A model generated the notes under the pieces. That model saw only the letters and a list, made by a program, of their open reading frames with translations, had not been told where the DNA came from and searched no databases. A stretch of 64,000 nt of DNA from Streptococcus suis (lineage in GTDB: Bacteria; Bacillota; Bacilli; Lactobacillales; Streptococcaceae), in the NCBI RefSeq assembly GCF_902702775.1, contig NZ_LR738724.1, positions 1,364,001-1,428,000 on the forward strand. Direction: 5' to 3'. Position numbers and translations under genes: made by a program. Within the stretch, counting starts at the first letter, position 1. Each line of letters opens with the position of its first letter. Positions 34,627 through 55,552 of the stretch are shown here, piece after piece.

Positions 34627-35895
34627 CTAAACTTGAGCTACTTCATTTTTAGGTTTATGACCCACAAGAATAGTATAGCCTACTAGCCCCACAGAAAGCA
34701 AGAGGAAGATAAGGGAGATGCTTGTGACAGACAAAAGTGTCACCATCAGAGCTACCAAGGCTTGACCTGCAAGCATGCCAATATTAAATATAGTCCCCAT
34801 TCCTGCATTGATTGTCGCCAATTTATCCTCTGGCAATTCATTCATTATCAGGGCATACAATTTTGGATTGATAATACCAGCCGTCATGGTATTGAGTAAG
34901 ATAACTACCATTACAATATAGATATTATGAAAGTAAAATCCGACAAACAGCATGACCGACAAACCTGTACAAAATTTGAGCAGGTTGGATAAGCTGACAT
35001 GTTTGAAGAAAGCCATGCCTAAACTAGAACCAAGGATGTAGCCGACAGAAAAGAGATTAAAGACCAAGGCAAGAGTTATTCCAGAATTGACAATCACGAA
35101 GTCTGGAAATTCCTTCATAGCCAGGATAACCAAGGGAGATACGGCACTAATAACCGTATTGATACCCGCAATGGTCAGAATAGAAGTCTTTAGTACAGGG
35201 ATGTTTTGAATGGCTTGATAAGATTCTTTTAGGCTCTGACCGACTCCTTTGATAAGGCCTGCTTCTGTTTCAGTTTGTTCAACTTCTTGGATAGGATTTT
35301 CTTTCAACAACTTGGCAAAAGCTGGACGAAGACCTGACATAATCGCAAGACTGACCAAGAAGGTCCCTGCATTGAAAAAGGCGAGATTCTGGTAAGACAT
35401 GAAGCCGATGAGAATAGCACCGCTAGATCGAAAGACAATCATCAAGATGCCGCCCACGGTATTCTTAAAAGCCATGGCTGTTTCACGGTCTTCTGCTGCA
35501 ACAACCCGCAGGCTAAGTGGCATATAAAGACCGTTTTCATATTGGCCAGCCAAGTCAGACAGGAAATTCACCATACAAACGACTGCTACAATCCAGAGAG
35601 CTGGTGTAAATCCCATTAGGAAGCCAACAAGTGCATATAAACCGAAACGTACAACTAAGGTAGCTAGAATGGTATCCAATTTGTTTTTTGTCCGATCAGC
35701 CCAGATTCCCATAAAAAGTCCCGACAAGATTGGCAGAGTTTCAGAAACCGTAATCATAGCCAGAGCAAACTTGGTATCTGGTAGAAACAGGACATAGTTC
35801 ATCAGAGCTAGATAGTAAAGCGTATCTCCAAAGTTGGAAATCACATCTGCTAGGTAACTGAACAAGAATATTTTATTACAGATAATTTTTTTCAC
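34627..35895 (-). CDS. MFS efflux-type transporter, copy 2
   Basis: This 422-residue, roughly twelve-helix MFS protein is of the MefA/MFS_3-like type, with the motif A loop GIWADRTKNKLDTI near residues 62-77. It is a close tandem paralogue of the upstream gene; long stretches such as ISNFGDTLYYLALMNYVLFL are identical. The first codon is GTG, with AAGGAA nine bases upstream. It is probably the result of a local duplication, and the pair may form separate pumps with shifted substrates. Nothing in the sequence gives the substrate. Confidence 0.87.
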   Translation of the reverse strand: MKKIICNKIFLFSYLADVISNFGDTLYYLALMNYVLFLPDTKFALAMITVSETLPILSGLFMGIWADRTKNKLDTILATLVVRFGLYALVGFLMGFTPALWIVAVVCMVNFLSDLAGQYENGLYMPLSLRVVAAEDRETAMAFKNTVGGILMIVFRSSGAILIGFMSYQNLAFFNAGTFLVSLAIMSGLRPAFAKLLKENPIQEVEQTETEAGLIKGVGQSLKESYQAIQNIPVLKTSILTIAGINTVISAVSPLVILAMKEFPDFVIVNSGITLALVFNLFSVGYILGSSLGMAFFKHVSLSNLLKFCTGLSVMLFVGFYFHNIYIVMVVILLNTMTAGIINPKLYALIMNELPEDKLATINAGMGTIFNIGMLAGQALVALMVTLLSVTSISLIFLLLSVGLVGYTILVGHKPKNEVAQV

Positions 35896-35930
35896 AAGCG
35901 ATTTTCCTTCTAGTAGTCAAATTTTTCTAT

Positions 35931-37199
35931 CTATGCACTAGCTACAATCTTTTCAGGATTTTTTCCTGTAAAAATGCTATATCCCAACAATCCCACAGAA
36001 AGCAAGAGGAAGATAAGGGAAATACTGGTCGGAGACAAGAACATTACCATCAATGACACCAAGGCTTGACCTGCTACCATACCAATCTGACAGAAGGCAT
36101 CAATCCCTCCACCAACTGTCGCCAATTTATCCTCTGGCAATTCATTCATAACCAGAGCACCCATTTTCGGATTGAAAATTCCCAAAGTCATTGCCGTTAC
36201 GAAGAGAACAGCTAGCACCATATAGATATTGTGAAGAAAAATCCCTGAAAAAAGTAAGACTGGCATAAGAGTAGAGAACTTGAGCAGGTTGATTAGACTG
36301 ACATTTTTAAAGGCTGCCATCCCCACGCTTGAACCCAAAATACTACCAACTGAGAAGAGAATGGAAATCAAAGCCACCGTTGTCCCCGCATTGACAATTA
36401 CAAAATCTGAAAACTCCTTCATATTTAAAACCACCAAGGGAGAGAGAGCTGTAAAGATGGCATTCAAGCTAGCAATGGTGATGATTGACGCTTTAAGTAC
36501 GGGAATATTCTGCACAGCTTGGTAGGATTCTTTGAGGCTCTGACCAATTCCTTTGACAATCCCAGCTTCAGTTTCTACTTGCTCGGCCTGCTGGATAGGA
36601 TTTTCTTTCAGTAATTTAGCAAAAGCTGGACGAAGAATTGCCATAATAGCCAGACTAACCAAGAAGGTACCAGCATTGAAGAAGGCAAGTTGTTGATAAG
36701 ACATAAATCCGATCAGGATGGCTCCGCTGGCTTGAAATGCAATCTGAAAGAGTGATTTGACTGTCATTTTGAAGGCCATGGCTGTTTCGCGATCCTCTGC
36801 TGCCACAACCCGCAGGCTGACAGGCAGATAAAGACCATTTTCATATTGACCTGCCAAATCAGACAAGAAGTTGATGACACATACGACTGCTACAATCCAG
36901 AGAGCTGGGGCAAAGCCCATTAAGAGACCAACAAGGGTATACAGGCCGACACGAACCAGCAGGGTTGCAAGAATGGTATCCAATTTATTTTTCGTCTTAT
37001 CTGCCCAAATCCCGATAAAGAGACCTGCCAAAATCGGCAAAGTTTCAGAAGCCGTAATCATAGCCAAGGCAAACTTGGTATCTGGTAGAAACAGGACATA
37101 GTTCATCAAAGCCAGATAGTAAAGCGTATCTCCAAAGTTAGAAATCAAGTCTGCCACAAAGCTAGATAGAAATAATTTATTGTTGACTAGTTTTTTCAT
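35931..37199 (-). CDS. MFS efflux-type transporter, copy 1
   Basis: This 422-residue MFS protein is the first gene of the MFS-MFS-ArsR operon. I chose the ATG at 37199 (MKKLVNNKLFL), six bases after AGGAG; the ATG two codons earlier would touch the ribosome site. Motif A reads GIWADKTKNKLDTI. The central cytosolic loop (about 190-215) and helices 7-12 differ most between the two copies. Drug or peptide export is the common role of the family; substrate unknown. Confidence 0.87.
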   Translation of the reverse strand: MKKLVNNKLFLSSFVADLISNFGDTLYYLALMNYVLFLPDTKFALAMITASETLPILAGLFIGIWADKTKNKLDTILATLLVRVGLYTLVGLLMGFAPALWIVAVVCVINFLSDLAGQYENGLYLPVSLRVVAAEDRETAMAFKMTVKSLFQIAFQASGAILIGFMSYQQLAFFNAGTFLVSLAIMAILRPAFAKLLKENPIQQAEQVETEAGIVKGIGQSLKESYQAVQNIPVLKASIITIASLNAIFTALSPLVVLNMKEFSDFVIVNAGTTVALISILFSVGSILGSSVGMAAFKNVSLINLLKFSTLMPVLLFSGIFLHNIYMVLAVLFVTAMTLGIFNPKMGALVMNELPEDKLATVGGGIDAFCQIGMVAGQALVSLMVMFLSPTSISLIFLLLSVGLLGYSIFTGKNPEKIVASA

Positions 37200-37220
37200 A
37201 AACATCTCCTTAAACTTAGA

Positions 37221-41201: not shown

Positions 41202-42383
41202 TTAAATAGAATCTATTAGAACTTCTGAAAATTGACTAGTAGATAGATGAGCAACGTCCAAAATTTTAGCAAAATCAAGCGTAACATTTTTATTTATAAA
41301 AGCGTCTTCCAAGGCCTGAATAATCAAAGTTGCCGCTTCTTTCCAGCCTATATATTCCAACATCATACAAGCCGAAAGCAAGAGGGAACATGGATTAGCC
41401 AGATCCTTTCCTGCAATATCAGGAGCAGTTCCATGTGTCGCTTCAAAGATAGCATGACCTGTCTGATAATTAATGTTAGCACCTGGTGAGATGCCTATTC
41501 CTCCGACCTGTGCCGCAAGAGCATCTGATGCATAATCTCCATTTAGATTTGTAAGAGCAACCACTTGGAAGTTTTCCGGCGCCAATAAAATCTGCTGCAG
41601 AAAGTTATCCGCAATAATGTCATTTACTACCAAAGTCCCCTCTGCAAGTTCTGTAGCAAATTCTTCTTTCGCCAATTCATAACCCCACTTGCGGAAACCG
41701 CCTTCTGTAAACTTTTGAATATTTCCCTTATGAACTAAGGTCACTATCTTCAGTTGATGTTCTAAGGCATATTCTATTGCAGAGCGAATGAGGCGTTTAC
41801 TCCCTTCTTCCGAAATCGGTTTGATACCAATACTTGAAGATTCTGGAAAACGAATATTTACCACTCCCATTTCTTCTTGCAGAAAGGAAATGACTTTGGC
41901 AACTTCATCTGAACCAGCCTCCCATTCAATACCTGCATAAATATCTTCTGTATTTTCACGAAAAATAGTAATATCTGTCTTTCCAGGCTCTTTCAGCGGA
42001 CTTGGCACTCCCTTAAAATAGCGAATCGGGCGCACACAGGCATACAAATCTAATTCTTGACGAAGTGCAACATTAAGAGAACGATGACCTTTCCCAATCG
42101 GCGTCCCCAAAGGACCTTTGATTGCAACTAAATACTCACGGATTATTGACAATGTCTCATTCGGCAAAGAAGTTCCCGTTAATTCATAAGCCTTTTCTCC
42201 TGCAAAAACCTCCCTCCACTGAATAGAACGTTGACCTGCATAGGCTTTTTTCACTGCAGCATCAATAACTTTTTGACTGACTGACCAAATATCCCTGCCA
42301 ATACCATCTCCTTCAATATAAGGAATAACGGGACAATCTGGGACGATTAACCGTCCCTCTCTCATCAGGATTTTTTCTGCCAT
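41202..42383 (-). CDS. icd: Isocitrate dehydrogenase, probably NAD-dependent
   Basis: This 393-residue enzyme converts isocitrate to 2-oxoglutarate. The substrate-binding Ser102 is in [16 protein letters not shown], with [14 protein letters not shown] at the N-terminus. In the cofactor loop [17 protein letters not shown], Asp322, Ile323 and Ala329 replace the Lys344, Tyr345 and Val351 that bind the NADP phosphate in E. coli. This residue set is linked to NAD use. It starts two bases after the gltA stop, as third gene of acnA-gltA-icd. No strong terminator is visible after it. Confidence 0.93.
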
Positions 42384-42385
42384 AT

Positions 42386-43504
42386 TTACCTCTTTCCAAT
42401 CGGGATGTAAACCAAATTCCTACCACCTAAGTAGGAAGAGCGCGGACGAATCAATTTATTATTTTTCCGTTGTTCCTGGACATGTGCAATCCACCCCGCC
42501 ATACGGCTCATTGCAAAAATCAATGTAAAAATATCACTATCAATACCTAGCACATGGTAAACTGTCGCCGAATAAAAATCTACGTTTGGAATTAAACCTT
42601 TTTTGTTTTTAATAAAACTCTCTACTTCCTCTGACAATCTATAAAACGCTTCATCGTCTGTTCCGAATGTCAAATCACGCGCCATCTCCTTCAAGTACTC
42701 TTGACGAGGATCAACCGTTTTATAGACTCGATGGCCGAATCCCATAATTTTTTCCTTCGAATCCAGCTTCTTCTGCAAATATCTCTCGGCATCACCACCC
42801 TCACGAATAGCCAGCAACATGTCAAACACTCGTTCATTTGCACCACCATGCAATGAGCCTTTCAGAGTCCCAATTGCCGTGGTGACACAAGAATATAAAT
42901 CCGTTAACGTTGATGCCGTGACACGCGCAGCAAAAGTAGACGCATTCAATTCATGATCAGCATGAAGCACCAAAGCTTTGTTAAACGCTTTGATTTGCAA
43001 ATCACTCGGCTCCTCACCGTTCAGCATATAAAGAAAATTCGCCGCAAAACCAAGATCAGCCCGCGGTTCGATTGGAACCAATCCGCGTCTCAAACGAGCA
43101 AATGTTGCAATAATTGTCGGAACCTTGGCCATAATCTGAATAGATTGTTCATACAAAGCTTCTAACGAATTCTCCTCAGCGTGTACATTATATACTCCAA
43201 GGAGAGATACTGTCGAACGCAATACGCTCATAGGATGCAAATGTCGCCGCGATTGAATCAGAATACATTGCTCTACCGCATCTGAAATCGCATATTCTTT
43301 TCGCAGGCTTTTCTCAAAATAATTTAATTCAATCTGAGTTGGCAAATGCAGGTTCCACAGAAGATAGATGACTTCCTCAAAAGAAGCGTTATTCTCCATC
43401 AATTCAGCAATGTCATATCCTGCATAGGACAAGCGGTCATTTTCAATTGCACTGATTCGCGTATCACAGGCAATCGCATCTTTTAACCCATTCGTTTCTG
43501 TCAT
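42386..43504 (-). CDS. gltA: Citrate synthase
   Basis: This 372-residue type I short-form citrate synthase (also called citZ in Firmicutes) condenses acetyl-CoA and oxaloacetate. Catalytic residues are visible in LHGGANE (His), MGFGHRVYK (His) and IPNVDFYSA (Asp). The [10 protein letters not shown] segment is conserved. The ATG overlaps the acnA stop by four bases (ATGA), so translation is coupled. It supplies the acnA-icd branch that makes 2-oxoglutarate for glutamate. Confidence 0.95.
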
Positions 43505-46170
43505 ACCTTTCCTCCTAGTTTCTTTCTTACTACCATAGGTAAAATACCTCCGTGACGATAATAACGAATATCCGCCTCTGCATCAAACCGCACCAGAGCT
43601 TGAAACTCCTTTGTAACATCGTCTGTTTGCACATGGACTGTTACAATTTGACCAACACTGACATCTTCTGGCAAGTCGATTGTATAGCTTTCGTGTCCAG
43701 TCAAGCCAAGACTTTCTGCCGACTGACCTTCTAAAAATTGTAAAGGAAGAACACCCATCATCACTAAGTTTGAACGGTGAATCCGCTCAAATGACTCAGC
43801 AAGAACAGCCTTCACACCAAGTAAACTTGAACCTTTGGCTGCCCAATCACGGCTTGACCCCATCCCATAGTCTTTACCAGCAATAACAATACTACCGATA
43901 CCAGCTTCCTTATATCTCATAGCCGCATCATAGATTGAAAGAATCTCATCACCAACTCTTGTCCAACCACCAATTTTTCCATCTGCCAGCTCATTCTTTA
44001 TACGAATATTTGCAAAAGTCCCACGCATCATGACTTCGTGATTTCCACGACGACTTCCATAAGAATTAAAATCCTTATAAACAATGCCATTTTCTTCGAG
44101 ATAACGAGCGGCTGGACTCAATCGTGCAATATTCCCTGCCGGGGAAATATGATCTGTCGTTACAGAATCGCCAAATTTAGCCAAAACAGATAAATTTTCC
44201 AGTGGTTTTATGGATAAATCTGCCTGCATATTGTCAAAATAGGGCGGATTTTGAATATAGGTAGAAGAGGAATTCCAATTGTAATTCTTATCTGTCTTTG
44301 TTTCAATCGCATTCCAAGCCTGACTATCTGTAAATACCTGTTGGTATTCTTCCTTATAAAGGTCACGAGTCACATAACGCTCAATGTAGTCATCTACTTC
44401 CTCACGACTTGGCATAATGTCCGCAAGGTAGACAGCTTGTTGCTTCTCGTCATACCCCAGCGGATCCCTTGTTAAATCTACATTCATATTTCCCGCAATA
44501 GCATAGGCAACTACTAGCGGAGGGCTCGCTAAGAAATTAGCTTTTACCAATGGATTAATCCGTCCTTCAAAGTTACGATTTCCAGATAATACCGCAGAAA
44601 CCAATAAATCTTCTTCCTTAATCGCCTCCGCTACTTCGGGACGCAGATCACCTGAGTTACCGATACAAGTTGTACAACCATAACCAACCAAATTGAACCC
44701 TAAGGCATCTAGATAGGTCTGTAAACCTGATTTTTTCAAATAGCCAGTCACTACTTTTGAGCCTGGTGCCAATGACGTCTTGACTGTCTTAGAAACTGCC
44801 AGACCTTTTTCTACCGCATTTTTTGCCAGTAATCCTGCCGCCAAAAGGACATACGGATTGGATGTATTTGTACATGAGGTAATCGCCGCAATAGCAACAT
44901 GACCTGTTTGAATTTGCTCCTCTCCTTCAACATACTTAACCGTGGCTGTTTTATCTAACTCTGCTTCCTCCAAACCAAATCCACGCACACCTACTTCACG
45001 TATTAAACTAGCCTGAAACTCTGCTTTTGCATCTGTTAATTCGATCAAATCTTGTGGTCTTTTAGGACCAGAAATAGATGGAACTACTGTCGATAAATCC
45101 AATTCTAAAACCTTGCTATAAGACGGAAAATGTTCAGCATCATAGAATAAATAATTAGCCTTAGCATAGGCTTCTGTCAACTCCACGTGCTCCTCCGAAC
45201 GGTTGGTCAATCTCATATAATGTAAAGTTTCTCCATCAATCGGGAAATAGCCACAAGTCGCACCGTATTCTGGAGCCATATTAGAAACAGTTGCTCGATC
45301 CGCTAATGTAAGAGAAGATAAACCTGGTCCAAAGAATTCGACAAACTTCCCAACTACATTTTCCTGACGTAGAAGTTGAGTGACTTTAAGCGCCAAATCC
45401 GTTGCAGTGGCAACCTTAGGCAATTGCCCAGCTAGGCGAACACCAATCACCTCAGGGATAGGAAAATAAGATGCTTCACCCAACATTGCAGCTTCCGCCT
45501 CAATACCACCCACACCCCAACCAAGTACACCAATACCATTAATCATGGTCGTATGACTGTCTGTACCAAACATAGAATCTGGATAAAGCAAGCCATCCTT
45601 GTTGATAATAACATCGCTTAGAAATTCAATGTTTACCTGATGGATAATTCCTGTCGCTGGAGGCACTGCACGATAATTTTCAAAGGAATTCTCTGCCCAT
45701 TTCAGAAATTCATAGCGTTCATTATTTCTTTCGAACTCTAAGTCAATATTTTTCTCCAGAGCATCTTCAGTCCCAAAAAAATCAACTTGAACAGAGTGGT
45801 CGATGACTAAATCCACTGGAATTTCTGGGTTAATCAATTCAGGGTTTCCACCTGCTTTCACCACCGCATCACGCATGGAGGCTAAATCTACCACAACAGG
45901 AACACCTGTAAAATCTTGCAAAATAACACGACTAGGTTTAAAGGGGATTTCTCCTTTAGGAGATGCCGCCTGATAATGAAGCAACTCCATTATGTGATTT
46001 TTTGTAACGTCTACGCCATCTTCTTTTCTTAAAAGACTTTCTAATAAAATACGAATAGTATAGGGAAGTGAATGAATATCCACTTTTTCTTCCGTTGAAA
46101 TCGAATCCAATGCATAATATGAATATTCTCTCCCTTTATGAAACAAGCTTTTTCTATGTAATTTTTCCAT
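43501..46170 (-). CDS. acnA: Aconitate hydratase
   Basis: This 889-residue [4Fe-4S] aconitase of the AcnA/IRP1 type has cluster cysteines in [11 protein letters not shown] and [14 protein letters not shown] (about 430-505). The swivel domain contains [20 protein letters not shown] (about 765-785). It converts citrate to isocitrate. GAGG lies nine bases before the ATG at 46170. It is first in the acnA-gltA-icd operon. The rest of the TCA cycle is not in the window, as expected for streptococci. Confidence 0.95.
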
Positions 46171-48967: not shown

Positions 48968-49170
48968 GACACTAACATTCATTGATGCTAAAGCATCTAA
49001 TGAATGCACGGTACTGACTATTTGGTCAGTACCTAAGTGGCTTACTACCTCGAAAAGTCGTTAAGTTCGAACGACTTTTCTCAGGTCGTAACTTGCAAGG
49101 GTTTAGCTGTTGGTAAACCAACTAGCTAATCTACGCTAACCGCTATCGGCGGATTAGCTAGCTACCTCAC
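48965..49170. repeat. Hairpin-rich repeat unit A between nrdE and nrdF
   Basis: Non-coding unit of about 200 bp, repeated 240 bp downstream. It contains nested inverted repeats: GGTACTGAC / GTCAGTACC (49010-49033), an 11-bp stem GAAAAGTCGTT / AACGACTTTTC (49052-49080), and weaker TTGGT/ACCAA and TTAGC/GCTAA arms further on. Compared with unit B it has about nine extra bases near its left end. Confidence 0.8.
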
Positions 49171-49172
49171 TA

Positions 49173-49211
49173 ACTCCGAAACTGAAGAAATATCGTCTTC
49201 AGTTTCGGAGT
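49173..49211. repeat. Perfect 16-bp hairpin between the repeat units
   Basis: ACTCCGAAACTGAAGA (49173-49188) and its exact complement (49196-49211) around a seven-base loop. It has no U-run, so it is not a standard terminator. Confidence 0.85.
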
Positions 49212-49215
49212 GTCG

Positions 49216-49410
49216 TAAGACACTAATGCTAAAGCATCTAATGAATGCACGGTACTGACTATTTGGTCAATACCTAAGTGGCTTACTACCTCGAAAAGTC
49301 GTTAAGTTCGAACGACTTTTCTCAGGTCGTAACTTGCAAGGGATTAGCTGTTGGCAAGCCAACTACCGTATCTACGCTAACTGCTATTGGTGGCTTAGCT
49401 TACTACCTTA
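49216..49410. repeat. Hairpin-rich repeat unit B between nrdE and nrdF
   Basis: Second copy of the unit at 48965-49170. The first 130 bases are almost identical (one change, GTCAATACC for GTCAGTACC); the right part has diverged. The same 11-bp GAAAAGTCGTT hairpin is kept. No reading frame in either copy looks real. Confidence 0.8.
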
Positions 49411-49455
49411 CGACACTGTCGTTCATGATGTAAAGCAACTAATGAGCGCTCGATT

Positions 49456-50507: not shown

Positions 50508-50538
50508 AAGCAGTTCAATCCGAGCTGCTTATTTTTTA
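50508..50538. terminator. Terminator between convergent nrdF and CPBP protease gene
   Basis: AAGCAG / CTGCTT with inner pairing TC/GA, followed by ATTTTTT on the plus strand and by TTTTTTGAT on the minus strand. Confidence 0.75.
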
Positions 50539-51210
50539 TACTAAAAATACAATCATCAAATAAGAAATACCGTTGTTGAGCATATGTAGCGCAATCGGAT
50601 AACGAATATCACGTTTGATCAGATAGAGCCATCCTAGATTGAGTCCCATCGTGAAATAAATCAAAAATTGAGGAAGGGTTGCCGGCATATGGACTAGACT
50701 AAATAAAGACCCCGTTACAACAAGATAGATTCCAACAGCCTTCATATCTGCCATTTTAGGGAAGAAATAGGTCGCTAAAAATCCACGGAAGATCAATTCT
50801 TCTAAAATGGGAGCAAAAACCACTACTGAGCTAAATGCAATCAAGGGATAAGCTGATACGAATTCGATTACAAGCTTTTGGTTTTCACTTTCTGGGACTG
50901 GTACAATAAATTGGAAGATAAAAAATGCAATATAGAGTAATATCGGCCATTGAATCTTTTGGAACCATGAAGCTGTCACACGATAGTCAACAGAATGACG
51001 TGGATAGATATACTTCCATAACAGAATAATGAGCGCAATAGAGAGAACAAGACCAATTATCGCACAAATCCAAATTGTACTATCAATCAACTGGGCAGGA
51101 ATATCAGGAATCGTTTGTAAGGTTGGTCCTACCATTAGAAAACCTGAAGCAATTTGATAGGCAACAAAGTATAGAAATAGTAATGCAGCGTGTTTGATAA
51201 ATTTCAACAT
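50536..51210 (-). CDS. CPBP-family intramembrane metalloprotease
   Basis: This 224-residue protein of about six helices belongs to the CPBP (Abi/CAAX) glutamic-type protease family. Motif 1 EELIFRG (Glu137-Glu138, Arg142), motif 2 SLVHM (His174) and motif 3 LHMLNN (His209) are all present, so it is probably active. Such proteins are known as bacteriocin self-immunity factors (for example the SkkI/PlnI type) or as maturases of small peptides. It is the last gene of the membrane-protein cluster. Confidence 0.88.
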   Translation of the reverse strand: MLKFIKHAALLFLYFVAYQIASGFLMVGPTLQTIPDIPAQLIDSTIWICAIIGLVLSIALIILLWKYIYPRHSVDYRVTASWFQKIQWPILLYIAFFIFQFIVPVPESENQKLVIEFVSAYPLIAFSSVVVFAPILEELIFRGFLATYFFPKMADMKAVGIYLVVTGSLFSLVHMPATLPQFLIYFTMGLNLGWLYLIKRDIRYPIALHMLNNGISYLMIVFLV

Positions 51211-51219
51211 ATTCCCTCC

Positions 51220-51411
51220 CTACAAGCTCAAGTCAATAATATTATCGACCCGAACCAACTTGGTTTCAAGCTCCCCATTCGCTAATTCACGAGAAATTTT
51301 AACCCACTCCTCATCAACTGCCAAAATAGTGTATTCATAAGTAATAGAAAATTCCTCATCAAAGCGGATTTTGGCTTTACTTCCGACCAATTCTTTCAAT
51401 AAAACTGACAT
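51220..51411 (-). CDS. Small conserved hypothetical protein (63 aa)
   Basis: This 63-residue soluble protein is predicted mostly beta (KAKIRFDEEFSITYEYTILAVDEEWVKI, ending KLVRVDNIIDLSL), reminiscent of small SH3- or Sm-like folds. The ATG at 51411 has AAGGAG eight bases upstream; the longer frame has no such site. It lies nine bases before the CPBP gene and is the only clearly non-membrane small protein at this end of the cluster. I cannot assign a function. Confidence 0.75.
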   Translation of the reverse strand: MSVLLKELVGSKAKIRFDEEFSITYEYTILAVDEEWVKISRELANGELETKLVRVDNIIDLSL

Positions 51412-51461
51412 CTGATTTTCTCCTTTTGTAGTTTTCTGCAATTTTTTACCCTAGCTTGCAA

Positions 51462-51536
51462 TTACTTCACTTTTTTCCTATCTGATAGAGAATTGAAAAA
51501 TAGAAATCCTACTAGAATCCATAAAAATAGTTCCAT
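51462..51536 (-). CDS. Candidate 24-aa single-span membrane peptide
   Basis: The short frame starts with ATG five bases after GGAGG and encodes MELFLWILVGFLFFNSL followed by a basic tail (SDRKKVK). That is one membrane helix with a positively charged C-terminus. It fills the gap between the CPBP gene (nine bases before it) and the next gene. Size and layout resemble small membrane peptides or type I toxin-like peptides, but it matches none that I recognise. Confidence 0.55.
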   Translation of the reverse strand: MELFLWILVGFLFFNSLSDRKKVK

Positions 51537-51545
51537 CCTATCCTC

Positions 51546-52235
51546 CTATATCAAGCCCAGACTTTGCATCAGTAGCATCAACAAAAATCCGAGAAGATTA
51601 TTCAGACTGTGTAGAATAAGTGCATTGGTATATTTGCCAGAAATACGATAGGCGAGTCCCAGGACCAGGCCCATACCTCCGTAGACAACCCAAGATCCGC
51701 TATTGGTCGGATTGTGAATAAGTCCAAACAGAAAACTCGATAGCAATAATCCCACAATCGAATCCTTACCAAAGACTTTCCCCATAAGAATCCCTCTGAA
51801 AAGCAGTTCCTCCAAAACTGGAGCAAAGAAAACTGCAAAGAGAAATAAAACTAAGGTTGGCAAGCCTGAATTGTTGATAATTTCCTGATTGGCAGTCGTT
51901 TGACCGTATCCCTCTTCCAGCATAATCAATTGCCCGCCAATTATTTTCAGACCAAACATAACGATAAAGGCAAGGGCTACAAAACCAAAATTCGCACCTA
52001 TCCCCCACTTCTGCTCACCTTTCCACAGACCTAATTTACCAGTCAAGATAAGACCAAGCACTACAGCAACCAACAAGAAGGCAGCAGCAATCAGAAGGTT
52101 ATTCCCATCAAAATTTGGTAGAGTAAACATAGCCATCTGGGTCAATACATTAAGGGCAACGACAGCTAGTCCCACTAAGAGAAACTTCCAATTTTTAACC
52201 ACATTCCAATCTTTGACACTTCCAAGTCTATTCAT
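51546..52235 (-). CDS. CPBP-family intramembrane metalloprotease
   Basis: This 229-residue protein of seven or eight helices has motifs EELLFRG (Glu142-Glu143, Arg147), GLIHN (His174) and LHSLNN (His209). I chose the ATG at 52235 (MNRLGSVKDW), eight bases after AAGGAG; the longer frame overlaps the upstream gene without a site. It differs clearly from the other CPBP protein in the cluster outside the motifs, so it is not a recent duplicate. Likely role: peptide processing or self-protection in the membrane. Confidence 0.88.
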   Translation of the reverse strand: MNRLGSVKDWNVVKNWKFLLVGLAVVALNVLTQMAMFTLPNFDGNNLLIAAAFLLVAVVLGLILTGKLGLWKGEQKWGIGANFGFVALAFIVMFGLKIIGGQLIMLEEGYGQTTANQEIINNSGLPTLVLFLFAVFFAPVLEELLFRGILMGKVFGKDSIVGLLLSSFLFGLIHNPTNSGSWVVYGGMGLVLGLAYRISGKYTNALILHSLNNLLGFLLMLLMQSLGLI

Positions 52236-52260
52236 AGCAATCTCCTTCACATACACAAAA

Positions 52261-52446
52261 TCAGTTTTCATTACTTTCTTTTTCGATCAATAGCAGAGCA
52301 GGCAAGCCCAAAACCATCGGCAAGAGGATATTCAGGGTTGACAAATCAATCTGCCCAGTAGCCAGCCACTCTCCGAAAATATAGCCAACTGCGTAGAGAC
52401 CAAGGCCGATTAATAGGACAAGATAAATTTTCATAAAGACTTTCAT
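52261..52446 (-). CDS. Small membrane protein (61 aa, two helices)
   Basis: This 61-residue protein has two hydrophobic segments (about 5-25 and 38-54) and a short acidic tail (EKESNEN). GGAG lies eight bases before the ATG. It lies between the DUF3278 and CPBP genes with short gaps. It resembles no family I can name. Confidence 0.7.
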   Translation of the reverse strand: MKVFMKIYLVLLIGLGLYAVGYIFGEWLATGQIDLSTLNILLPMVLGLPALLLIEKESNEN

Positions 52447-52464
52447 GAGCTAACTCCATTTAAA

Positions 52465-52974
52465 CTAAATAAGCTTGATTTTCTTACGGTTGACAATATA
52501 GAAACTAAGGAATCCAACAAGAGTCATCAAGACAACTGTCATGGGAGTGACAAACTGGAAATACTCGGCTGCAGATGTCCCGCTTTCCTGTGGAATTTGT
52601 AACTGCCAGAGACCAATACTAACTAACAGACCGTAGACAGCAATCTGTAGGGTTTGAAACAGAGTTCGTTTCATCATTTTCTTCCGAGCCAATTTCACAT
52701 CAGCCTTTGCAACAAACAATTTATCCAGTCCCAACTGTTTGATAATGGCGTCCTGTTTGAATTGAGAATAAACCAACGTCAAGAAGAGGCTGATTCCCAT
52801 GACATCTTCTCCCAGCGCAAAGCTAACTAGAAAGCTCAGCAGTGTCACTGTCATAAAGAGCATATACATATTGTTGCCGAAATTCGTCAAGGTCGCATAA
52901 GACACCTCATCTAACTCACCAACAATATCATAGAAATAACGAATTGCTTTGATGTGTACATTTTCCTTTTTCAT
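52465..52974 (-). CDS. DUF3278-type membrane protein
   Basis: This 169-residue protein has four hydrophobic segments in two pairs (about 32-52, 57-70, 108-125, 140-160) and a basic stretch KADVKLARKKMMKR between them. It resembles the DUF3278 family, which in streptococci is found next to XRE regulators, as here. Function unknown. AAAGGAAAA lies before the ATG; it follows the DUF3169 gene by 31 bp. Confidence 0.6.
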   Translation of the reverse strand: MKKENVHIKAIRYFYDIVGELDEVSYATLTNFGNNMYMLFMTVTLLSFLVSFALGEDVMGISLFLTLVYSQFKQDAIIKQLGLDKLFVAKADVKLARKKMMKRTLFQTLQIAVYGLLVSIGLWQLQIPQESGTSAAEYFQFVTPMTVVLMTLVGFLSFYIVNRKKIKLI

Positions 52975-53005
52975 AGCTAGTACCTAAAAACCTTTCATAA
53001 CATTC

Positions 53006-53770
53006 TTATTTGAAGTAACGACGGATCATGCGGACCTGCATGACATTGATGTAAATGTGAAGAAAGGCAACAACTAGAAATGCTGTAATTTGTCGCTCCT
53101 GCAATAGCATGCTAAGTACAAATAGGAATAGATACAAACCTGGTAACACGATTTGATTCAAAGTGAAGACGATTTGGAAACTCATTTCGTAGTTTGCTTG
53201 TTTCTCCCCCTCGTCCATTGCCTCCATAAAATCCTTCACTTCTTTTACCGTAGCAAAAGCAGACAACTGATAGTCACGAATTTTCTGAGTTAATTTCATG
53301 ATAAAAATCTGACCAATGAGAAGAATAACATAGAAAACTGCATCAAATATTGATCCGTACATGATCGCACTCTCTTCTAAGAAGGCAACACCAAAACCAA
53401 AACCTAATCCTAAATTTAAAAGAGTCAATGACGCAGCAATATTAAACATTATAATCGCATATTCTAGGTTACGATACATTTTCATATTTAGTTCATCTGC
53501 CCGTTCCTCATCCTCATCTGAAATCGAATGATAAAGTTTATACGATTGATTTGCCTTAAGCCCAAGATATACAGTTCCGGCGAAAATGACAAAAGTAACG
53601 ATACGCAAACAAAATAGAAAGTTATCTAGATTGACAAAAGACGGCAATCCAAACTTATCAATCATTACTCCAAAAAAGCCACAAAATGCTCCAAAAATTG
53701 CCCCTAAAAACAAATAGGTAAGGTTCCTCATCCATCTTTGTTTTGTTGTAATTTGTTTCCCCTGTTTCAT
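53006..53770 (-). CDS. DUF3169-type membrane protein
   Basis: This 254-residue protein has six hydrophobic segments and a charged cytosolic loop (SISDEDEERADELNMKMYRNLEY, about 83-105) typical of DUF3169 proteins. These commonly pair with a small XRE repressor in Firmicutes. Its ATG overlaps the stop of the XRE gene by four bases (ATGA), so the two are made together. A sensor or anti-repressor role is possible but unproven. Confidence 0.75.
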   Translation of the reverse strand: MKQGKQITTKQRWMRNLTYLFLGAIFGAFCGFFGVMIDKFGLPSFVNLDNFLFCLRIVTFVIFAGTVYLGLKANQSYKLYHSISDEDEERADELNMKMYRNLEYAIIMFNIAASLTLLNLGLGFGFGVAFLEESAIMYGSIFDAVFYVILLIGQIFIMKLTQKIRDYQLSAFATVKEVKDFMEAMDEGEKQANYEMSFQIVFTLNQIVLPGLYLFLFVLSMLLQERQITAFLVVAFLHIYINVMQVRMIRRYFK

Positions 53771-53982
53771 TCTCCAACCTCCACTAATTGAAAGACATTC
53801 TCCACATTTTCATTAAAAATTTGTGCTATACGCATGGCAATGACCACCGAGGGCGTATATTCCCCCCGCTCAATCAAGCTAATGGTCTGCCGTGATACTT
53901 CTGCTAACTTTGCTAGCTCTGTCTGATTGAGACCATCTCTGGCTCGCAATTCCTTGAGCCGATTTTTTAAGACATATTCCAT
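53767..53982 (-). CDS. XRE-family transcriptional regulator (71 aa)
   Basis: This 71-residue protein is almost only a helix-turn-helix: NRLKELRARDGLNQTELAKL, then EVSRQTISLIERGEYTPSVVIAMRIAQIF (residues about 15-55), ending in the acidic tail ENVFQLVEVGE. It is the YgzD/Cro-like small repressor type usually encoded with DUF3169 proteins. AAGGAAAA lies before the ATG. It is the only regulator in the cluster, so the inverted repeats at 55433-55499 are its best candidate operator. Confidence 0.9.
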   Translation of the reverse strand: MEYVLKNRLKELRARDGLNQTELAKLAEVSRQTISLIERGEYTPSVVIAMRIAQIFNENVENVFQLVEVGE

Positions 53983-53994
53983 GAGTTTTCCTTT

Positions 53995-54561
53995 CTAGGC
54001 TTGGTAGATAATCAAGCCAGTTTCTGTGTCTTCGACAGCTATATTTTCCTTGGCAAACTTGACCAATAAGAGATAGGCATAGTAGAAATCGCCTACACAA
54101 GCCACTGCATGCATAGTCACCAATATCAGATAAAGAGATACATCCATCCCCCAAAAAACTGCTACCATGGTCAAGCCCAAACTAATCACAACAAAGGGAG
54201 CCAGGCTAATCACTAGCATTTGCATCCTATTGTAGAGTGAACCTGGACTGGTCGCATAGGCCATGCCCGATTTCCATTTAAAACCAAACTTGACAGGATT
54301 TTCAGGACAAAAAATCTTGAAAAATAATCCATGAATAGCTTCATGCACAACTATTAAAAGAATATAGAGAGGGAAAAGCAACCATACCTCAGATACGGCC
54401 AGTTCCGAGTATTGCGAACCGTTAGCTATCAACCAACTGTCTATCATTCCAAATACAAAGGCAAATGGAAAGATGAGTACCACAGCAAGAATATTCAAGC
54501 CCCAGACAAACTTCTTATTTTCCATAATATTGACTTCATATAATTTCTTTTTCGCTTCCAT
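53995..54561 (-). CDS. DUF3267 zincin-like membrane metalloprotease
   Basis: This 188-residue protein has about four membrane helices. The HExxH zinc motif HEAIHGLFFKIF (His73, Glu74, His77) stands at the end of helix 2. DUF3267 proteins share this layout with site-2-type proteases, so peptide-bond cleavage in or near the membrane is likely but not shown. AAGGAG lies upstream of the ATG. It follows the 34-residue peptide gene by 27 bp and precedes the XRE gene by 12 bp. Confidence 0.82.
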   Translation of the reverse strand: MEAKKKLYEVNIMENKKFVWGLNILAVVLIFPFAFVFGMIDSWLIANGSQYSELAVSEVWLLFPLYILLIVVHEAIHGLFFKIFCPENPVKFGFKWKSGMAYATSPGSLYNRMQMLVISLAPFVVISLGLTMVAVFWGMDVSLYLILVTMHAVACVGDFYYAYLLLVKFAKENIAVEDTETGLIIYQA

Positions 54562-54588
54562 GCTTCTTCTCCTTCATTTTCCTACAAG

Positions 54589-54693
54589 CTAGACTAAACT
54601 ATATAGTCCTAGAGCAACTCCAATCAGTAAGCCAATAATACTTGCGCCTGCAATCACAATCGCTGCCATATCTGTTGAAATGTGTCGTTTCAT
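54589..54693 (-). CDS. Candidate 34-aa glycine-zipper membrane peptide
   Basis: The short frame has an excellent site (AGGAG six bases before the ATG). It encodes a hydrophilic start MKRHISTDMA and one membrane helix with regularly spaced glycines, GLLIGVALG (residues 21-29, GxxxGxxxG). It lies immediately upstream of the zincin-like protease gene, 20 bp after the previous gene. No double-glycine leader is seen. It may be an oligomerising membrane peptide, a bacteriocin-like product or a protease substrate. Confidence 0.65.
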   Translation of the reverse strand: MKRHISTDMAAIVIAGASIIGLLIGVALGLYSLV

Positions 54694-54713
54694 AAGGTTT
54701 CTCCTATCTTTCC

Positions 54714-54917
54714 TTAGCTTTTTTCACTATTTTTCTTTTTGTTAAATTGTAGAGCTAACACTAGTGTCGCCAACAAAGGAGGAAAGAGATAACTCATTTC
54801 CGTCAAACTAAGATCAAATCCTAGCAAGGCTAAAATTTTAAACACCAAAATATTTATCAAGAAGAGTGCAAAAAACAGTAGGACTACTTTCATTCCATTT
54901 TTAACTATCTTGTTCAT
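54714..54917 (-). CDS. Small membrane protein (67 aa, two helices)
   Basis: This 67-residue protein has two helices (about 10-30 and 40-58) and a basic, Lys/Asn/Ser tail. The start ATG overlaps the end of the 74-residue gene upstream by 17 bases; GGAGAAG lies upstream. It resembles its neighbour in layout (two helices, charged tail), so the two may be divergent duplicates. No known family recognised. Confidence 0.75.
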   Translation of the reverse strand: MNKIVKNGMKVVLLFFALFLINILVFKILALLGFDLSLTEMSYLFPPLLATLVLALQFNKKKNSEKS

Positions 54918-55125
54918 TTTTCTTCTCCTTTTCTCTGCTGAGAGTAACTTCTAAAAGAAGGAGAGAACTCGTCATCATCAAGAGTGGCATTGTATCTATC
55001 TCCTGACCAAATACAAATATTTGAACGAAACTATACATCAAGTATAGTGCAACTAGAATCTGCACTCCACGAACAACAGCTGTTCCTGAGATTAAAATTC
55101 CTTTTTTATTGTTATTGTTTTTCAT
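54901..55125 (-). CDS. Small membrane protein (74 aa, two helices)
   Basis: This 74-residue protein starts MKNNNNKKGILISG, has helices at about 20-40 and 48-62, and ends with the charged tail SREKEKKNEQDS. The ATG at 55125 follows a GGGGAAA stretch. A GTG four codons earlier is less likely. It is the second frame of the cluster after the interrupted gene at 55161-55349. Function unknown. Confidence 0.7.
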   Translation of the reverse strand: MKNNNNKKGILISGTAVVRGVQILVALYLMYSFVQIFVFGQEIDTMPLLMMTSSLLLLEVTLSREKEKKNEQDS

Positions 55126-55160
55126 AACTTTCCCCACTTACTTTCGACTAATTTTTCCTT

Positions 55161-55349
55161 TTACTCTTTTCTGATACCTAGTTTCCTCAAGCGCTCATCT
55201 GTCACTGCGATGGTGCAAATAGCAAGAACGACATGGGTTTTATCCAACTGCTACCACTTCATAATGTCAGCCAGCAGGACAAAAACAAGATAGATGATAG
55301 CGATAAGTTGTACAAAACGTTTGATGTCAATTTGATTTACCTTTTTCAT
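55161..55349 (-). pseudogene. Small membrane-protein gene interrupted by an in-frame TAG
   Basis: A frame of 62 sense codons runs from an ATG at 55349 (AGGAAA upstream) to a TAA at 55161, but codon 33 is TAG (55251-55253). The N-terminal 32 residues form one membrane helix (RFVQLIAIIYLVFVLLADI). The remainder (QLDKTHVVLAICTIAVTDE, then a basic end) would form a second helix and tail, matching the layout of the next two genes. It is either a recent nonsense mutation or a genuine 32-residue peptide. Confidence 0.6.
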
Positions 55350-55413: not shown

Positions 55414-55442
55414 ATTGTAACACTTCCTTTTCTTTTTGACAA
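55414..55442 (-). promoter_or_regulatory. Promoter of the membrane-protein cluster
   Basis: On the minus strand, -35 TTGTCA (55437-55442), a 17-base spacer ending in TGT and -10 TACAAT (55414-55419). It is the only clear promoter seen upstream of the cluster genes, about 65 bp before the first frame. Confidence 0.75.
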
Positions 55443-55499
55443 CTATCTTTGTCAAAAAAACAACAATTTTTTTCAAAAAGTTTATGAAGTTTGTCAAAA
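55433..55499. promoter_or_regulatory. Candidate XRE operator: repeated TTTGTCAAAA
   Basis: An inverted pair TTTTTGACA / TGTCAAAAA (55433-55458) overlaps the -35, and a third copy TTTGTCAAAA lies at 55490-55499. This is the type of arrangement bound by small XRE dimers; assignment to the XRE protein at 53767-53982 is inference. Confidence 0.55.
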
Positions 55500-55517: not shown

Positions 55518-55552
55518 AAAAACTCTTCTATCCATTGGATAGAAGAGTTTTT
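55518..55552 (-). terminator. Terminator after alaS
   Basis: A perfect 16-bp stem (AAAAACTCTTCTATCC and its complement) with loop ATT, then a T-run on the minus strand; ten bases after the alaS stop. Confidence 0.92.

What the first reader, a model, noticed from the sequence alone, without database searches (positions are those of the whole stretch)
50536..55349. A compact cluster of membrane proteases, tiny membrane proteins and an XRE switch
About thirteen same-strand genes are packed between two terminators behind one clear promoter. They comprise two CPBP proteases with complete motifs, one HExxH DUF3267 protein, XRE plus DUF3169 and DUF3278 membrane proteins, and six or more peptides of 24-74 residues, mostly membrane-spanning. 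Three different membrane proteases next to several candidate hydrophobic substrates suggest a peptide-maturation, self-immunity or membrane-stress system. I do not know a described system with this composition.
Basis: partly seen in the sequence, partly recalled or inferred. Interest (0 to 1): 0.78.

Follow-up and report, generated by a model that had tools for sequence, protein, structure and literature searches.

The report
Membrane-stress switch controlling membrane proteases
A bacterial operon in which a repressor and a membrane sensor, related to a pair that detects blocked protein export in Staphylococcus aureus, probably switches on membrane-embedded proteases; it is widespread in streptococci and could show how these cells clear stuck export signals from their membranes.

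Summary
The cluster is real: one minus-strand operon between the alaS and nrdF terminators, twelve genes, ten intact. The 24- and 63-residue 'peptides' are pieces of one interrupted gene; the 32-residue one is the front of another.

Its core is homologous to the AyrR/AyrA repressor-sensor pair of S. aureus ayrRABC (secretion stress). The XRE is 75% identical to that of Staphylococcus simiae and lies directly before a DUF3169 protein. The promoter overlaps a perfect palindrome, TTGACA-N8-TGTCAA, which also stands before the operon in many staphylococci and Bacillales. In the genus, palindrome plus -10 box occurs exactly once per genome in 97 of 147 genomes: 97 of 120 with DUF3169, 0 of 27 without.

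In S. aureus the switch drives an ABC transporter. Here CPBP proteases lie beside it in 83 of 111 loci, against 0 of 20 control loci. The window form has two CPBP proteases, one site-2-protease-like DUF3267 protein and no transporter.

Best reading: an inducible membrane quality-control operon that clears stuck signal peptides by intramembrane proteolysis. The switch is well supported by sequence; sensing and cleavage are inferred. New variant of a known kind.

The parts
55523..55547 (-). hairpin terminator of alaS, upstream boundary
   Evidence: fold z -9.2; sequence
55436..55455 (.). palindromic operator TTGACA-N8-TGTCAA, candidate AyrR site
   Evidence: only exact match in the 2.19 Mb genome; conserved in the genus and in Bacillales
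55414..55442 (-). promoter: -35 TTGTCA (right half of the operator), 17-base spacer, -10 TACAAT with TG
   Evidence: spacing conserved
55251..55349 (-). gene m, interrupted: first 32 residues of a small membrane protein (60-67 aa in L020, L021, L111, L139)
54901..55125 (-). gene l, 74-aa small membrane protein, paralogue of m by profile cross-hits
54714..54917 (-). gene k, 67-aa small membrane protein
54589..54693 (-). gene j, 34-aa single-span peptide; found in 8 of the 111 loci, twice in L123 and L176
53995..54561 (-). gene i, DUF3267 (PF11667) site-2-protease-like protein, HEAIH 73-77 and D158; only member in this genome
53767..53982 (-). gene h, XRE repressor, AyrR homologue (75% identical to Staphylococcus simiae)
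53006..53770 (-). gene g, DUF3169 membrane protein, AyrA homologue, DEGE at 186-189; overlaps h by 4 bases
52465..52974 (-). gene f, DUF3278 membrane protein
52261..52446 (-). gene e, 61-aa small membrane protein
51546..52235 (-). gene d, CPBP (Rce1-like) protease, EELLFR, FGLIH, HSLNN
51220..51536 (-). gene cb, interrupted here (pieces 51462-51536 and 51220-51411); one 105-aa ORF in L020, L023, L024, L109, L123
50536..51210 (-). gene a, CPBP (Rce1-like) protease, EELIFR, FSLVH, HMLNN
50508..50530 (.). hairpin terminator shared with the convergent nrdF gene

Best explanation
The operon is an AyrR/AyrA-type membrane quality-control operon whose effectors are intramembrane proteases. The XRE protein (AyrR) holds the operon off by binding the palindrome that overlaps the -35 box. 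The DUF3169 protein (AyrA) senses preproteins or signal peptides that stay in the membrane and relieves repression. The DUF3267 protein and the two CPBP proteases are then made and cut those peptides within the membrane, which removes the signal and lets AyrR close the operon again. In relatives an ABC transporter is added that may pull such proteins out. The small membrane proteins may be adaptors or guides for the proteases. Shown here by sequence: the homology, the operator-promoter design and its single copy per genome, the recurring association with proteases, the intact protease motifs. Shown in print for S. aureus only: repression, sensing through AyrA, derepression when signal peptidase is blocked. 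Inferred: that the same signal acts here, that the proteases cut signal peptides, and the role of the small proteins.
Confidence: 0.6

Rival explanations
1. A general envelope-stress operon: the AyrR/AyrA-like switch is real, but it answers membrane damage (for example by antimicrobial peptides) rather than stuck preproteins, and the proteases trim membrane proteins at large.
For: A PspC-domain gene sits in the operon in 32 of 111 loci; PspC is an envelope-stress domain (recalled). Craney and Romesberg themselves suggest that ayrRA without ayrBC may couple different membrane signals to other responses. Effector genes vary widely while the XRE is frozen.
Against: Operator, XRE and the AyrA motif are those of the system whose known inducer is stable signal peptides. 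The window operon has no PspC gene.
Confidence: 0.25
2. A peptide maturation and immunity cluster: the proteases process small membrane peptides encoded beside them and protect the producer.
For: A DUF3267 protease processes a membrane peptide in TMcin biosynthesis. The 34-aa peptide j is a plausible small substrate, restricted to 8 loci and duplicated in two of them.
Against: The four intact small proteins have no cysteine and the TMcin partners (ABC exporter, DsbA-like protein) are absent from the window operon. Two of the supposed peptides are fragments of interrupted genes. The AyrR/AyrA switch and its operator recur in operons without peptide j.
Confidence: 0.12
3. A pile of unrelated membrane genes that happen to share a strand.
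For: Gene content differs between loci, and two genes are interrupted here.
Against: Recurring order in several genomic contexts, 10-12 base gaps between AyrA or permease and CPBP in many loci, purifying selection on the ten intact genes compared, one conserved promoter-operator.
Confidence: 0.03

Closest known systems
ayrRABC of Staphylococcus aureus (secretion-stress operon; AyrR, AyrA, ABC transporter AyrBC)
   Same: Small XRE repressor directly before a DUF3169 membrane protein with D-E-x-E; palindrome over the promoter in staphylococcal relatives of the same design.
   Different: No ABC transporter in the window; two CPBP proteases, a DUF3267 protease, DUF3278 and small membrane proteins instead. 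XRE is the sixth gene of the operon, not the first.
TMcin biosynthetic cluster (TmcA, TmcP, TmcE, TmcBC, TmcD)
   Same: A DUF3267 protein of the site-2 protease clan with HExxH and a distal Asp, next to small membrane proteins.
   Different: No small protein with the cysteine pair, no ABC exporter, no DsbA-like protein in the window operon.
CPBP glutamic intramembrane proteases such as MroQ
   Same: PF02517 with complete EExxxR, FxxxH and HxxxN motifs.
   Different: Scores far below the curated MroQ cut-off (57 and 30 against 270 bits); context is an AyrR/AyrA operon, not agr.

Membership tests
AyrR/AyrA (ayrRA) switch | Small Cro/cI-type XRE repressor encoded directly before a DUF3169 gene | tested here: met
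   Window genes h and g overlap by 4 bases; XRE 75% identical to S. simiae; PF11368 95.4 bits. S. aureus itself was not in the data; S. simiae stands in for it.
AyrR/AyrA (ayrRA) switch | DUF3169 protein with conserved D-E(a/g)E motif | tested here: met
   DEGE at 186-189; D and E invariant in 65 aligned sequences.
AyrR/AyrA (ayrRA) switch | Six membrane spans, motif in the loop between spans four and five | tested here: inconclusive
   Only a crude hydropathy scan; the structure job for this protein was never accepted.
AyrR/AyrA (ayrRA) switch | Repressor binds upstream of its own operon | tested here: inconclusive
   A conserved palindrome over the -35 box fits; binding itself was not tested.
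ayrRABC operon | ABC transporter AyrBC downstream of ayrA | tested here: not met
   None in the window operon. ATPase plus permease in 27 of 111 loci, with a permease of another Pfam family.
ayrRABC operon | Induction by signal-peptidase inhibition and bypass of signal peptidase | not testable with these tools
   Needs culture work.
TMcin biosynthetic cluster | Precursor with one membrane helix and two conserved cysteines | tested here: not met
   No cysteine in e, j, k, l or the m fragment.
TMcin biosynthetic cluster | DUF3267 protease TmcP | tested here: met
   PF11667 87.3 bits; HEAIH and D158 invariant in 30 sequences.
TMcin biosynthetic cluster | ABC exporter TmcBC | tested here: not met
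   No such gene in the window operon.
Site-2 protease clan (fold) | Fold similar to solved site-2 proteases | tested here: inconclusive
CPBP protease family | EExxxR, FxxxH and HxxxN motifs | tested here: met
   Both window proteins; 102 of 103 CPBP ORFs of 150 aa or more in the profiled loci.
MroQ | Curated NCBIfam cut-off of 270 bits | tested here: not met
   57.3 and 29.6 bits.

The most novel reading that the evidence does not exclude
The operon-encoded intramembrane proteases are an inducible signal-peptide-clearing system, and the streptococcal counterpart of the unidentified membrane-embedded protease that the S. aureus signal-peptidase bypass seems to need. The AyrR/AyrA switch is then a general Bacilli device that senses stuck signal peptides and, depending on lineage, answers with extraction (ABC transporter), with proteolysis (CPBP, DUF3267), or with both, the small membrane proteins acting as protease guides.
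Probability: 0.3. Interest if true: 0.8.

Novelty: new variant of a known kind. Interest (0 to 1): 0.6.

Why it matters
How bacteria notice and clear stuck export signals is poorly understood, and signal peptidase is a drug target. If the reading holds, one conserved sensor-repressor pair across Bacilli controls different clearance machines, and in streptococci these include intramembrane proteases whose natural substrates are unknown. The single operator per genome makes the response a closed, testable unit: its whole regulon would be this operon.

Tried and rejected
Bacteriocin or peptide-maturation cluster: weighed against the TMcin description and not supported (see rivals). A wider regulon: the own genome holds one exact palindrome; the one-mismatch matches were not examined for promoters, and one-mismatch matches also occur in control DNA (4 in 300,020 bases). 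Some one-mismatch calls are a recurrent site inside another gene (for example L092), and some loci scored 'none' there because the XRE ORF start was set too far upstream; avoid this. One family of small membrane proteins: l and m cross-hit, but profile comparison gave no link to e or to the 45-locus small protein between XRE and DUF3169. Mobile origin: no DUF3169 hit in phages or plasmids. No solved relative of the CPBP protein d by sequence. Fold of DUF3169: not obtained. Foldseek on the DUF3267 model gave nothing significant.

Literature: answered searches were. I found no paper on streptococcal DUF3169 operons with proteases in them. Limits: Figure S2 of PMC5727409, which surveys staphylococcal and streptococcal loci, could not be seen; two earlier AyrR papers are not held. 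So the neighbourhoods may already be drawn there. PMC6004102 and PMC3142484 were seen as passages only and gave nothing used here.
Full report
What is there. The window lies in a single-contig genome of 2.19 Mb. Between alaS and nrdF runs a minus-strand gene series from 55349 to 50536. A strong hairpin terminator of alaS lies upstream (55523-55547, z -9.2) and a weaker one shared with nrdF lies downstream (50508-50530, z -2.4). The promoter-like site at 55442-55414 ties for the best match of the scan, although the scan as a whole found no more such sites than shuffles (19 against 21.7). In order the genes are m, l, k, j, i (DUF3267), h (XRE), g (DUF3169), f (DUF3278), e, d (CPBP), cb, a (CPBP); Pfam assignments are.

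Two genes are interrupted. The 24-aa and 63-aa ORFs are pieces of cb, which is one 105-aa ORF in L020, L023, L024, L109 and L123. The 32-aa ORF is the front of m, which is open over 60-67 aa in L020, L021, L111 and L139, and separately broken in L110. Whether these breaks are fixed in the species or specific to this assembly was not tested. The ten intact genes show dN/dS below 1 in every pairwise comparison made: XRE 0.02-0.03, CPBP 0.07-0.24, DUF3267 0.13-0.14, DUF3169 0.15-0.16, DUF3278 0.13-0.14, e 0.10-0.23, k 0.12-0.25, l 0.25-0.36, j 0.31-0.59 (for DUF3267 against L024 synonymous change is saturated, and j has few changes).

What it is related to. DUF3169 is AyrA in S. aureus. Craney and Romesberg (PMC5727409, parts 1-3 of 4 read) report that AyrR represses ayrRABC, that accumulation of preproteins with stable signal peptides derepresses it, and that AyrA is needed to relay this. 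They note that ayrA homologues in staphylococci and streptococci are virtually always directly downstream of ayrR homologues, while ayrBC is often missing, and suggest other responses may be coupled. Morisaki et al. (PMC5013292, passages only; [quoted passage not shown] DUF3267 is the family of TmcP, which removes the leader of the membrane peptide TMcin and belongs to the site-2 protease clan (PMC13252029, preprint, parts 1-2 of 5 and a term search).

Tests of that relation. DUF3169 is found in 120 of 147 genomes of the genus and in 111 of 398 genomes drawn from the class, 93 of them over the curated cut-off. I fetched loci for 110 of the 120 genomes (111 loci; ten genomes left out: G005, G095, G120, G136, G137, G140, G145, G147, G149, G150), 20 further loci from other genomes of the class and 45 named loci, 16 of them Staphylococcus. 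S. aureus itself was not returned. The XRE lies on the same strand within 6 kb in 111 of 111 loci and beside DUF3169 in 65 of 65 of the others, duplicates included. The window XRE is 75% identical over 64 residues to that of S. simiae. DUF3169 is only weakly similar pairwise (E 0.01) but clear by profile (E 3.4e-11), with the D-E motif invariant in 65 sequences.

The operator. The window promoter overlaps TTGACA-N8-TGTCAA. Upstream of the XRE (within 2.5 kb) 76 of 111 loci have it exactly, 17 with one mismatch, 3 with two, 15 none by that count; 300,020 bases of control DNA have 0 exact, 4 with one and 32 with two mismatches. Some of the one-mismatch and none calls are artefacts of ORF starts or of another recurrent site. 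Among the 65 other loci, 29 match exactly, 20 with one mismatch, 11 with two, 5 worse. When the right half-site is read as -35, a -10-like hexamer stands 17 bases on in 89 of 89 exact sites of the 111 loci and in 24 of 26 of 61 other loci (four duplicates dropped), against 2.55 and 1.16 expected; 30 of the 89 also have one at 20. Over whole genomes, operator plus -10 occurs once in each of 97 of 147 genomes, never twice, and the reversed pattern never. All 97 have DUF3169; none of the 27 genomes without it has the site. The switch therefore seems to have one target per genome: its own operon.

What it controls. Around DUF3169, on the same strand within 6 kb, local profiles found CPBP in 83 of 111 loci, cb in 69, an ABC ATPase in 38, the profiled permease in 27, PspC in 32, DUF3267 in 28 and DUF3278 in 9. 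In 20 arbitrarily chosen 15-kb control loci, CPBP, DUF3169 and DUF3267 were in 0, XRE in 3 and ATPase in 3. The window genome has nine CPBP matches and one DUF3267, so chance neighbours are rare. By class: CPBP alone 39, CPBP with ABC 22, none of the three 22, CPBP with DUF3267 21, ABC with DUF3267 4, DUF3267 alone 2, all three 1; a protease of either family in 89 of 111. The loci are related: on a quick tree CPBP presence needs at least 9 changes, either protease 8, permease 14. The association occurs in more than one genomic context: 44 of 44 loci beside aspS, and most of those beside alaS and nrdF. The staphylococcal and Bacillales loci show neither protease family in the range scanned. A common form elsewhere in the genus is cb-XRE-(small protein or PspC)-DUF3169-ATPase-permease-CPBP with gaps of about 10 bases, that is, an ayrRABC-like order with a CPBP gene added. 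The permease is of another Pfam family than the staphylococcal one.

Mechanism. Steps shown for S. aureus and inferred here: AyrR blocks the promoter; AyrA relays the presence of stuck preproteins and relieves repression. Steps inferred only: the three proteases cut stuck signal peptides in the membrane, which ends the signal; the small membrane proteins assist, as TmcE does for TmcP. The main rival keeps the switch but makes the signal general membrane damage. Peptide maturation is less likely, and chance grouping is nearly excluded.

Novelty and score. The switch is known; its use, in a large share of the genus, with intramembrane proteases, its conserved operator-promoter across Bacilli and its single target per genome are what I did not find in print, with the caveat that Figure S2 of PMC5727409 was not visible. 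I rate it a new variant of a known kind, interest 0.6.

Noticed in passing
window 48980-49411: Two direct copies of a 191-base sequence, 92% identical, lie between the nrdE and nrdF genes.
   Followed up: no
window 34627-37205: Two adjacent, clearly similar transporter-like genes of 422 and 424 aa stand in tandem, beside a gene of 348 aa.
   Followed up: no
window 41202-46170: Three adjacent genes that look like aconitase, citrate synthase and isocitrate dehydrogenase (names recalled from their sequences).
   Followed up: no
L110 5490-5693: Gene m is broken by a stop in this relative too, at a neighbouring codon to the one in the window, so the gene seems to be lost repeatedly.
   Followed up: partly
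45 loci such as L078 8158-8358: A 60-68 aa membrane protein sits between the XRE and DUF3169 genes, sometimes in two copies; no profile link to the small proteins of the window.
   Followed up: partly
L103, L104, L105, L106, L107, L154: Two DUF3169 genes in tandem behind one XRE gene.
   Followed up: no
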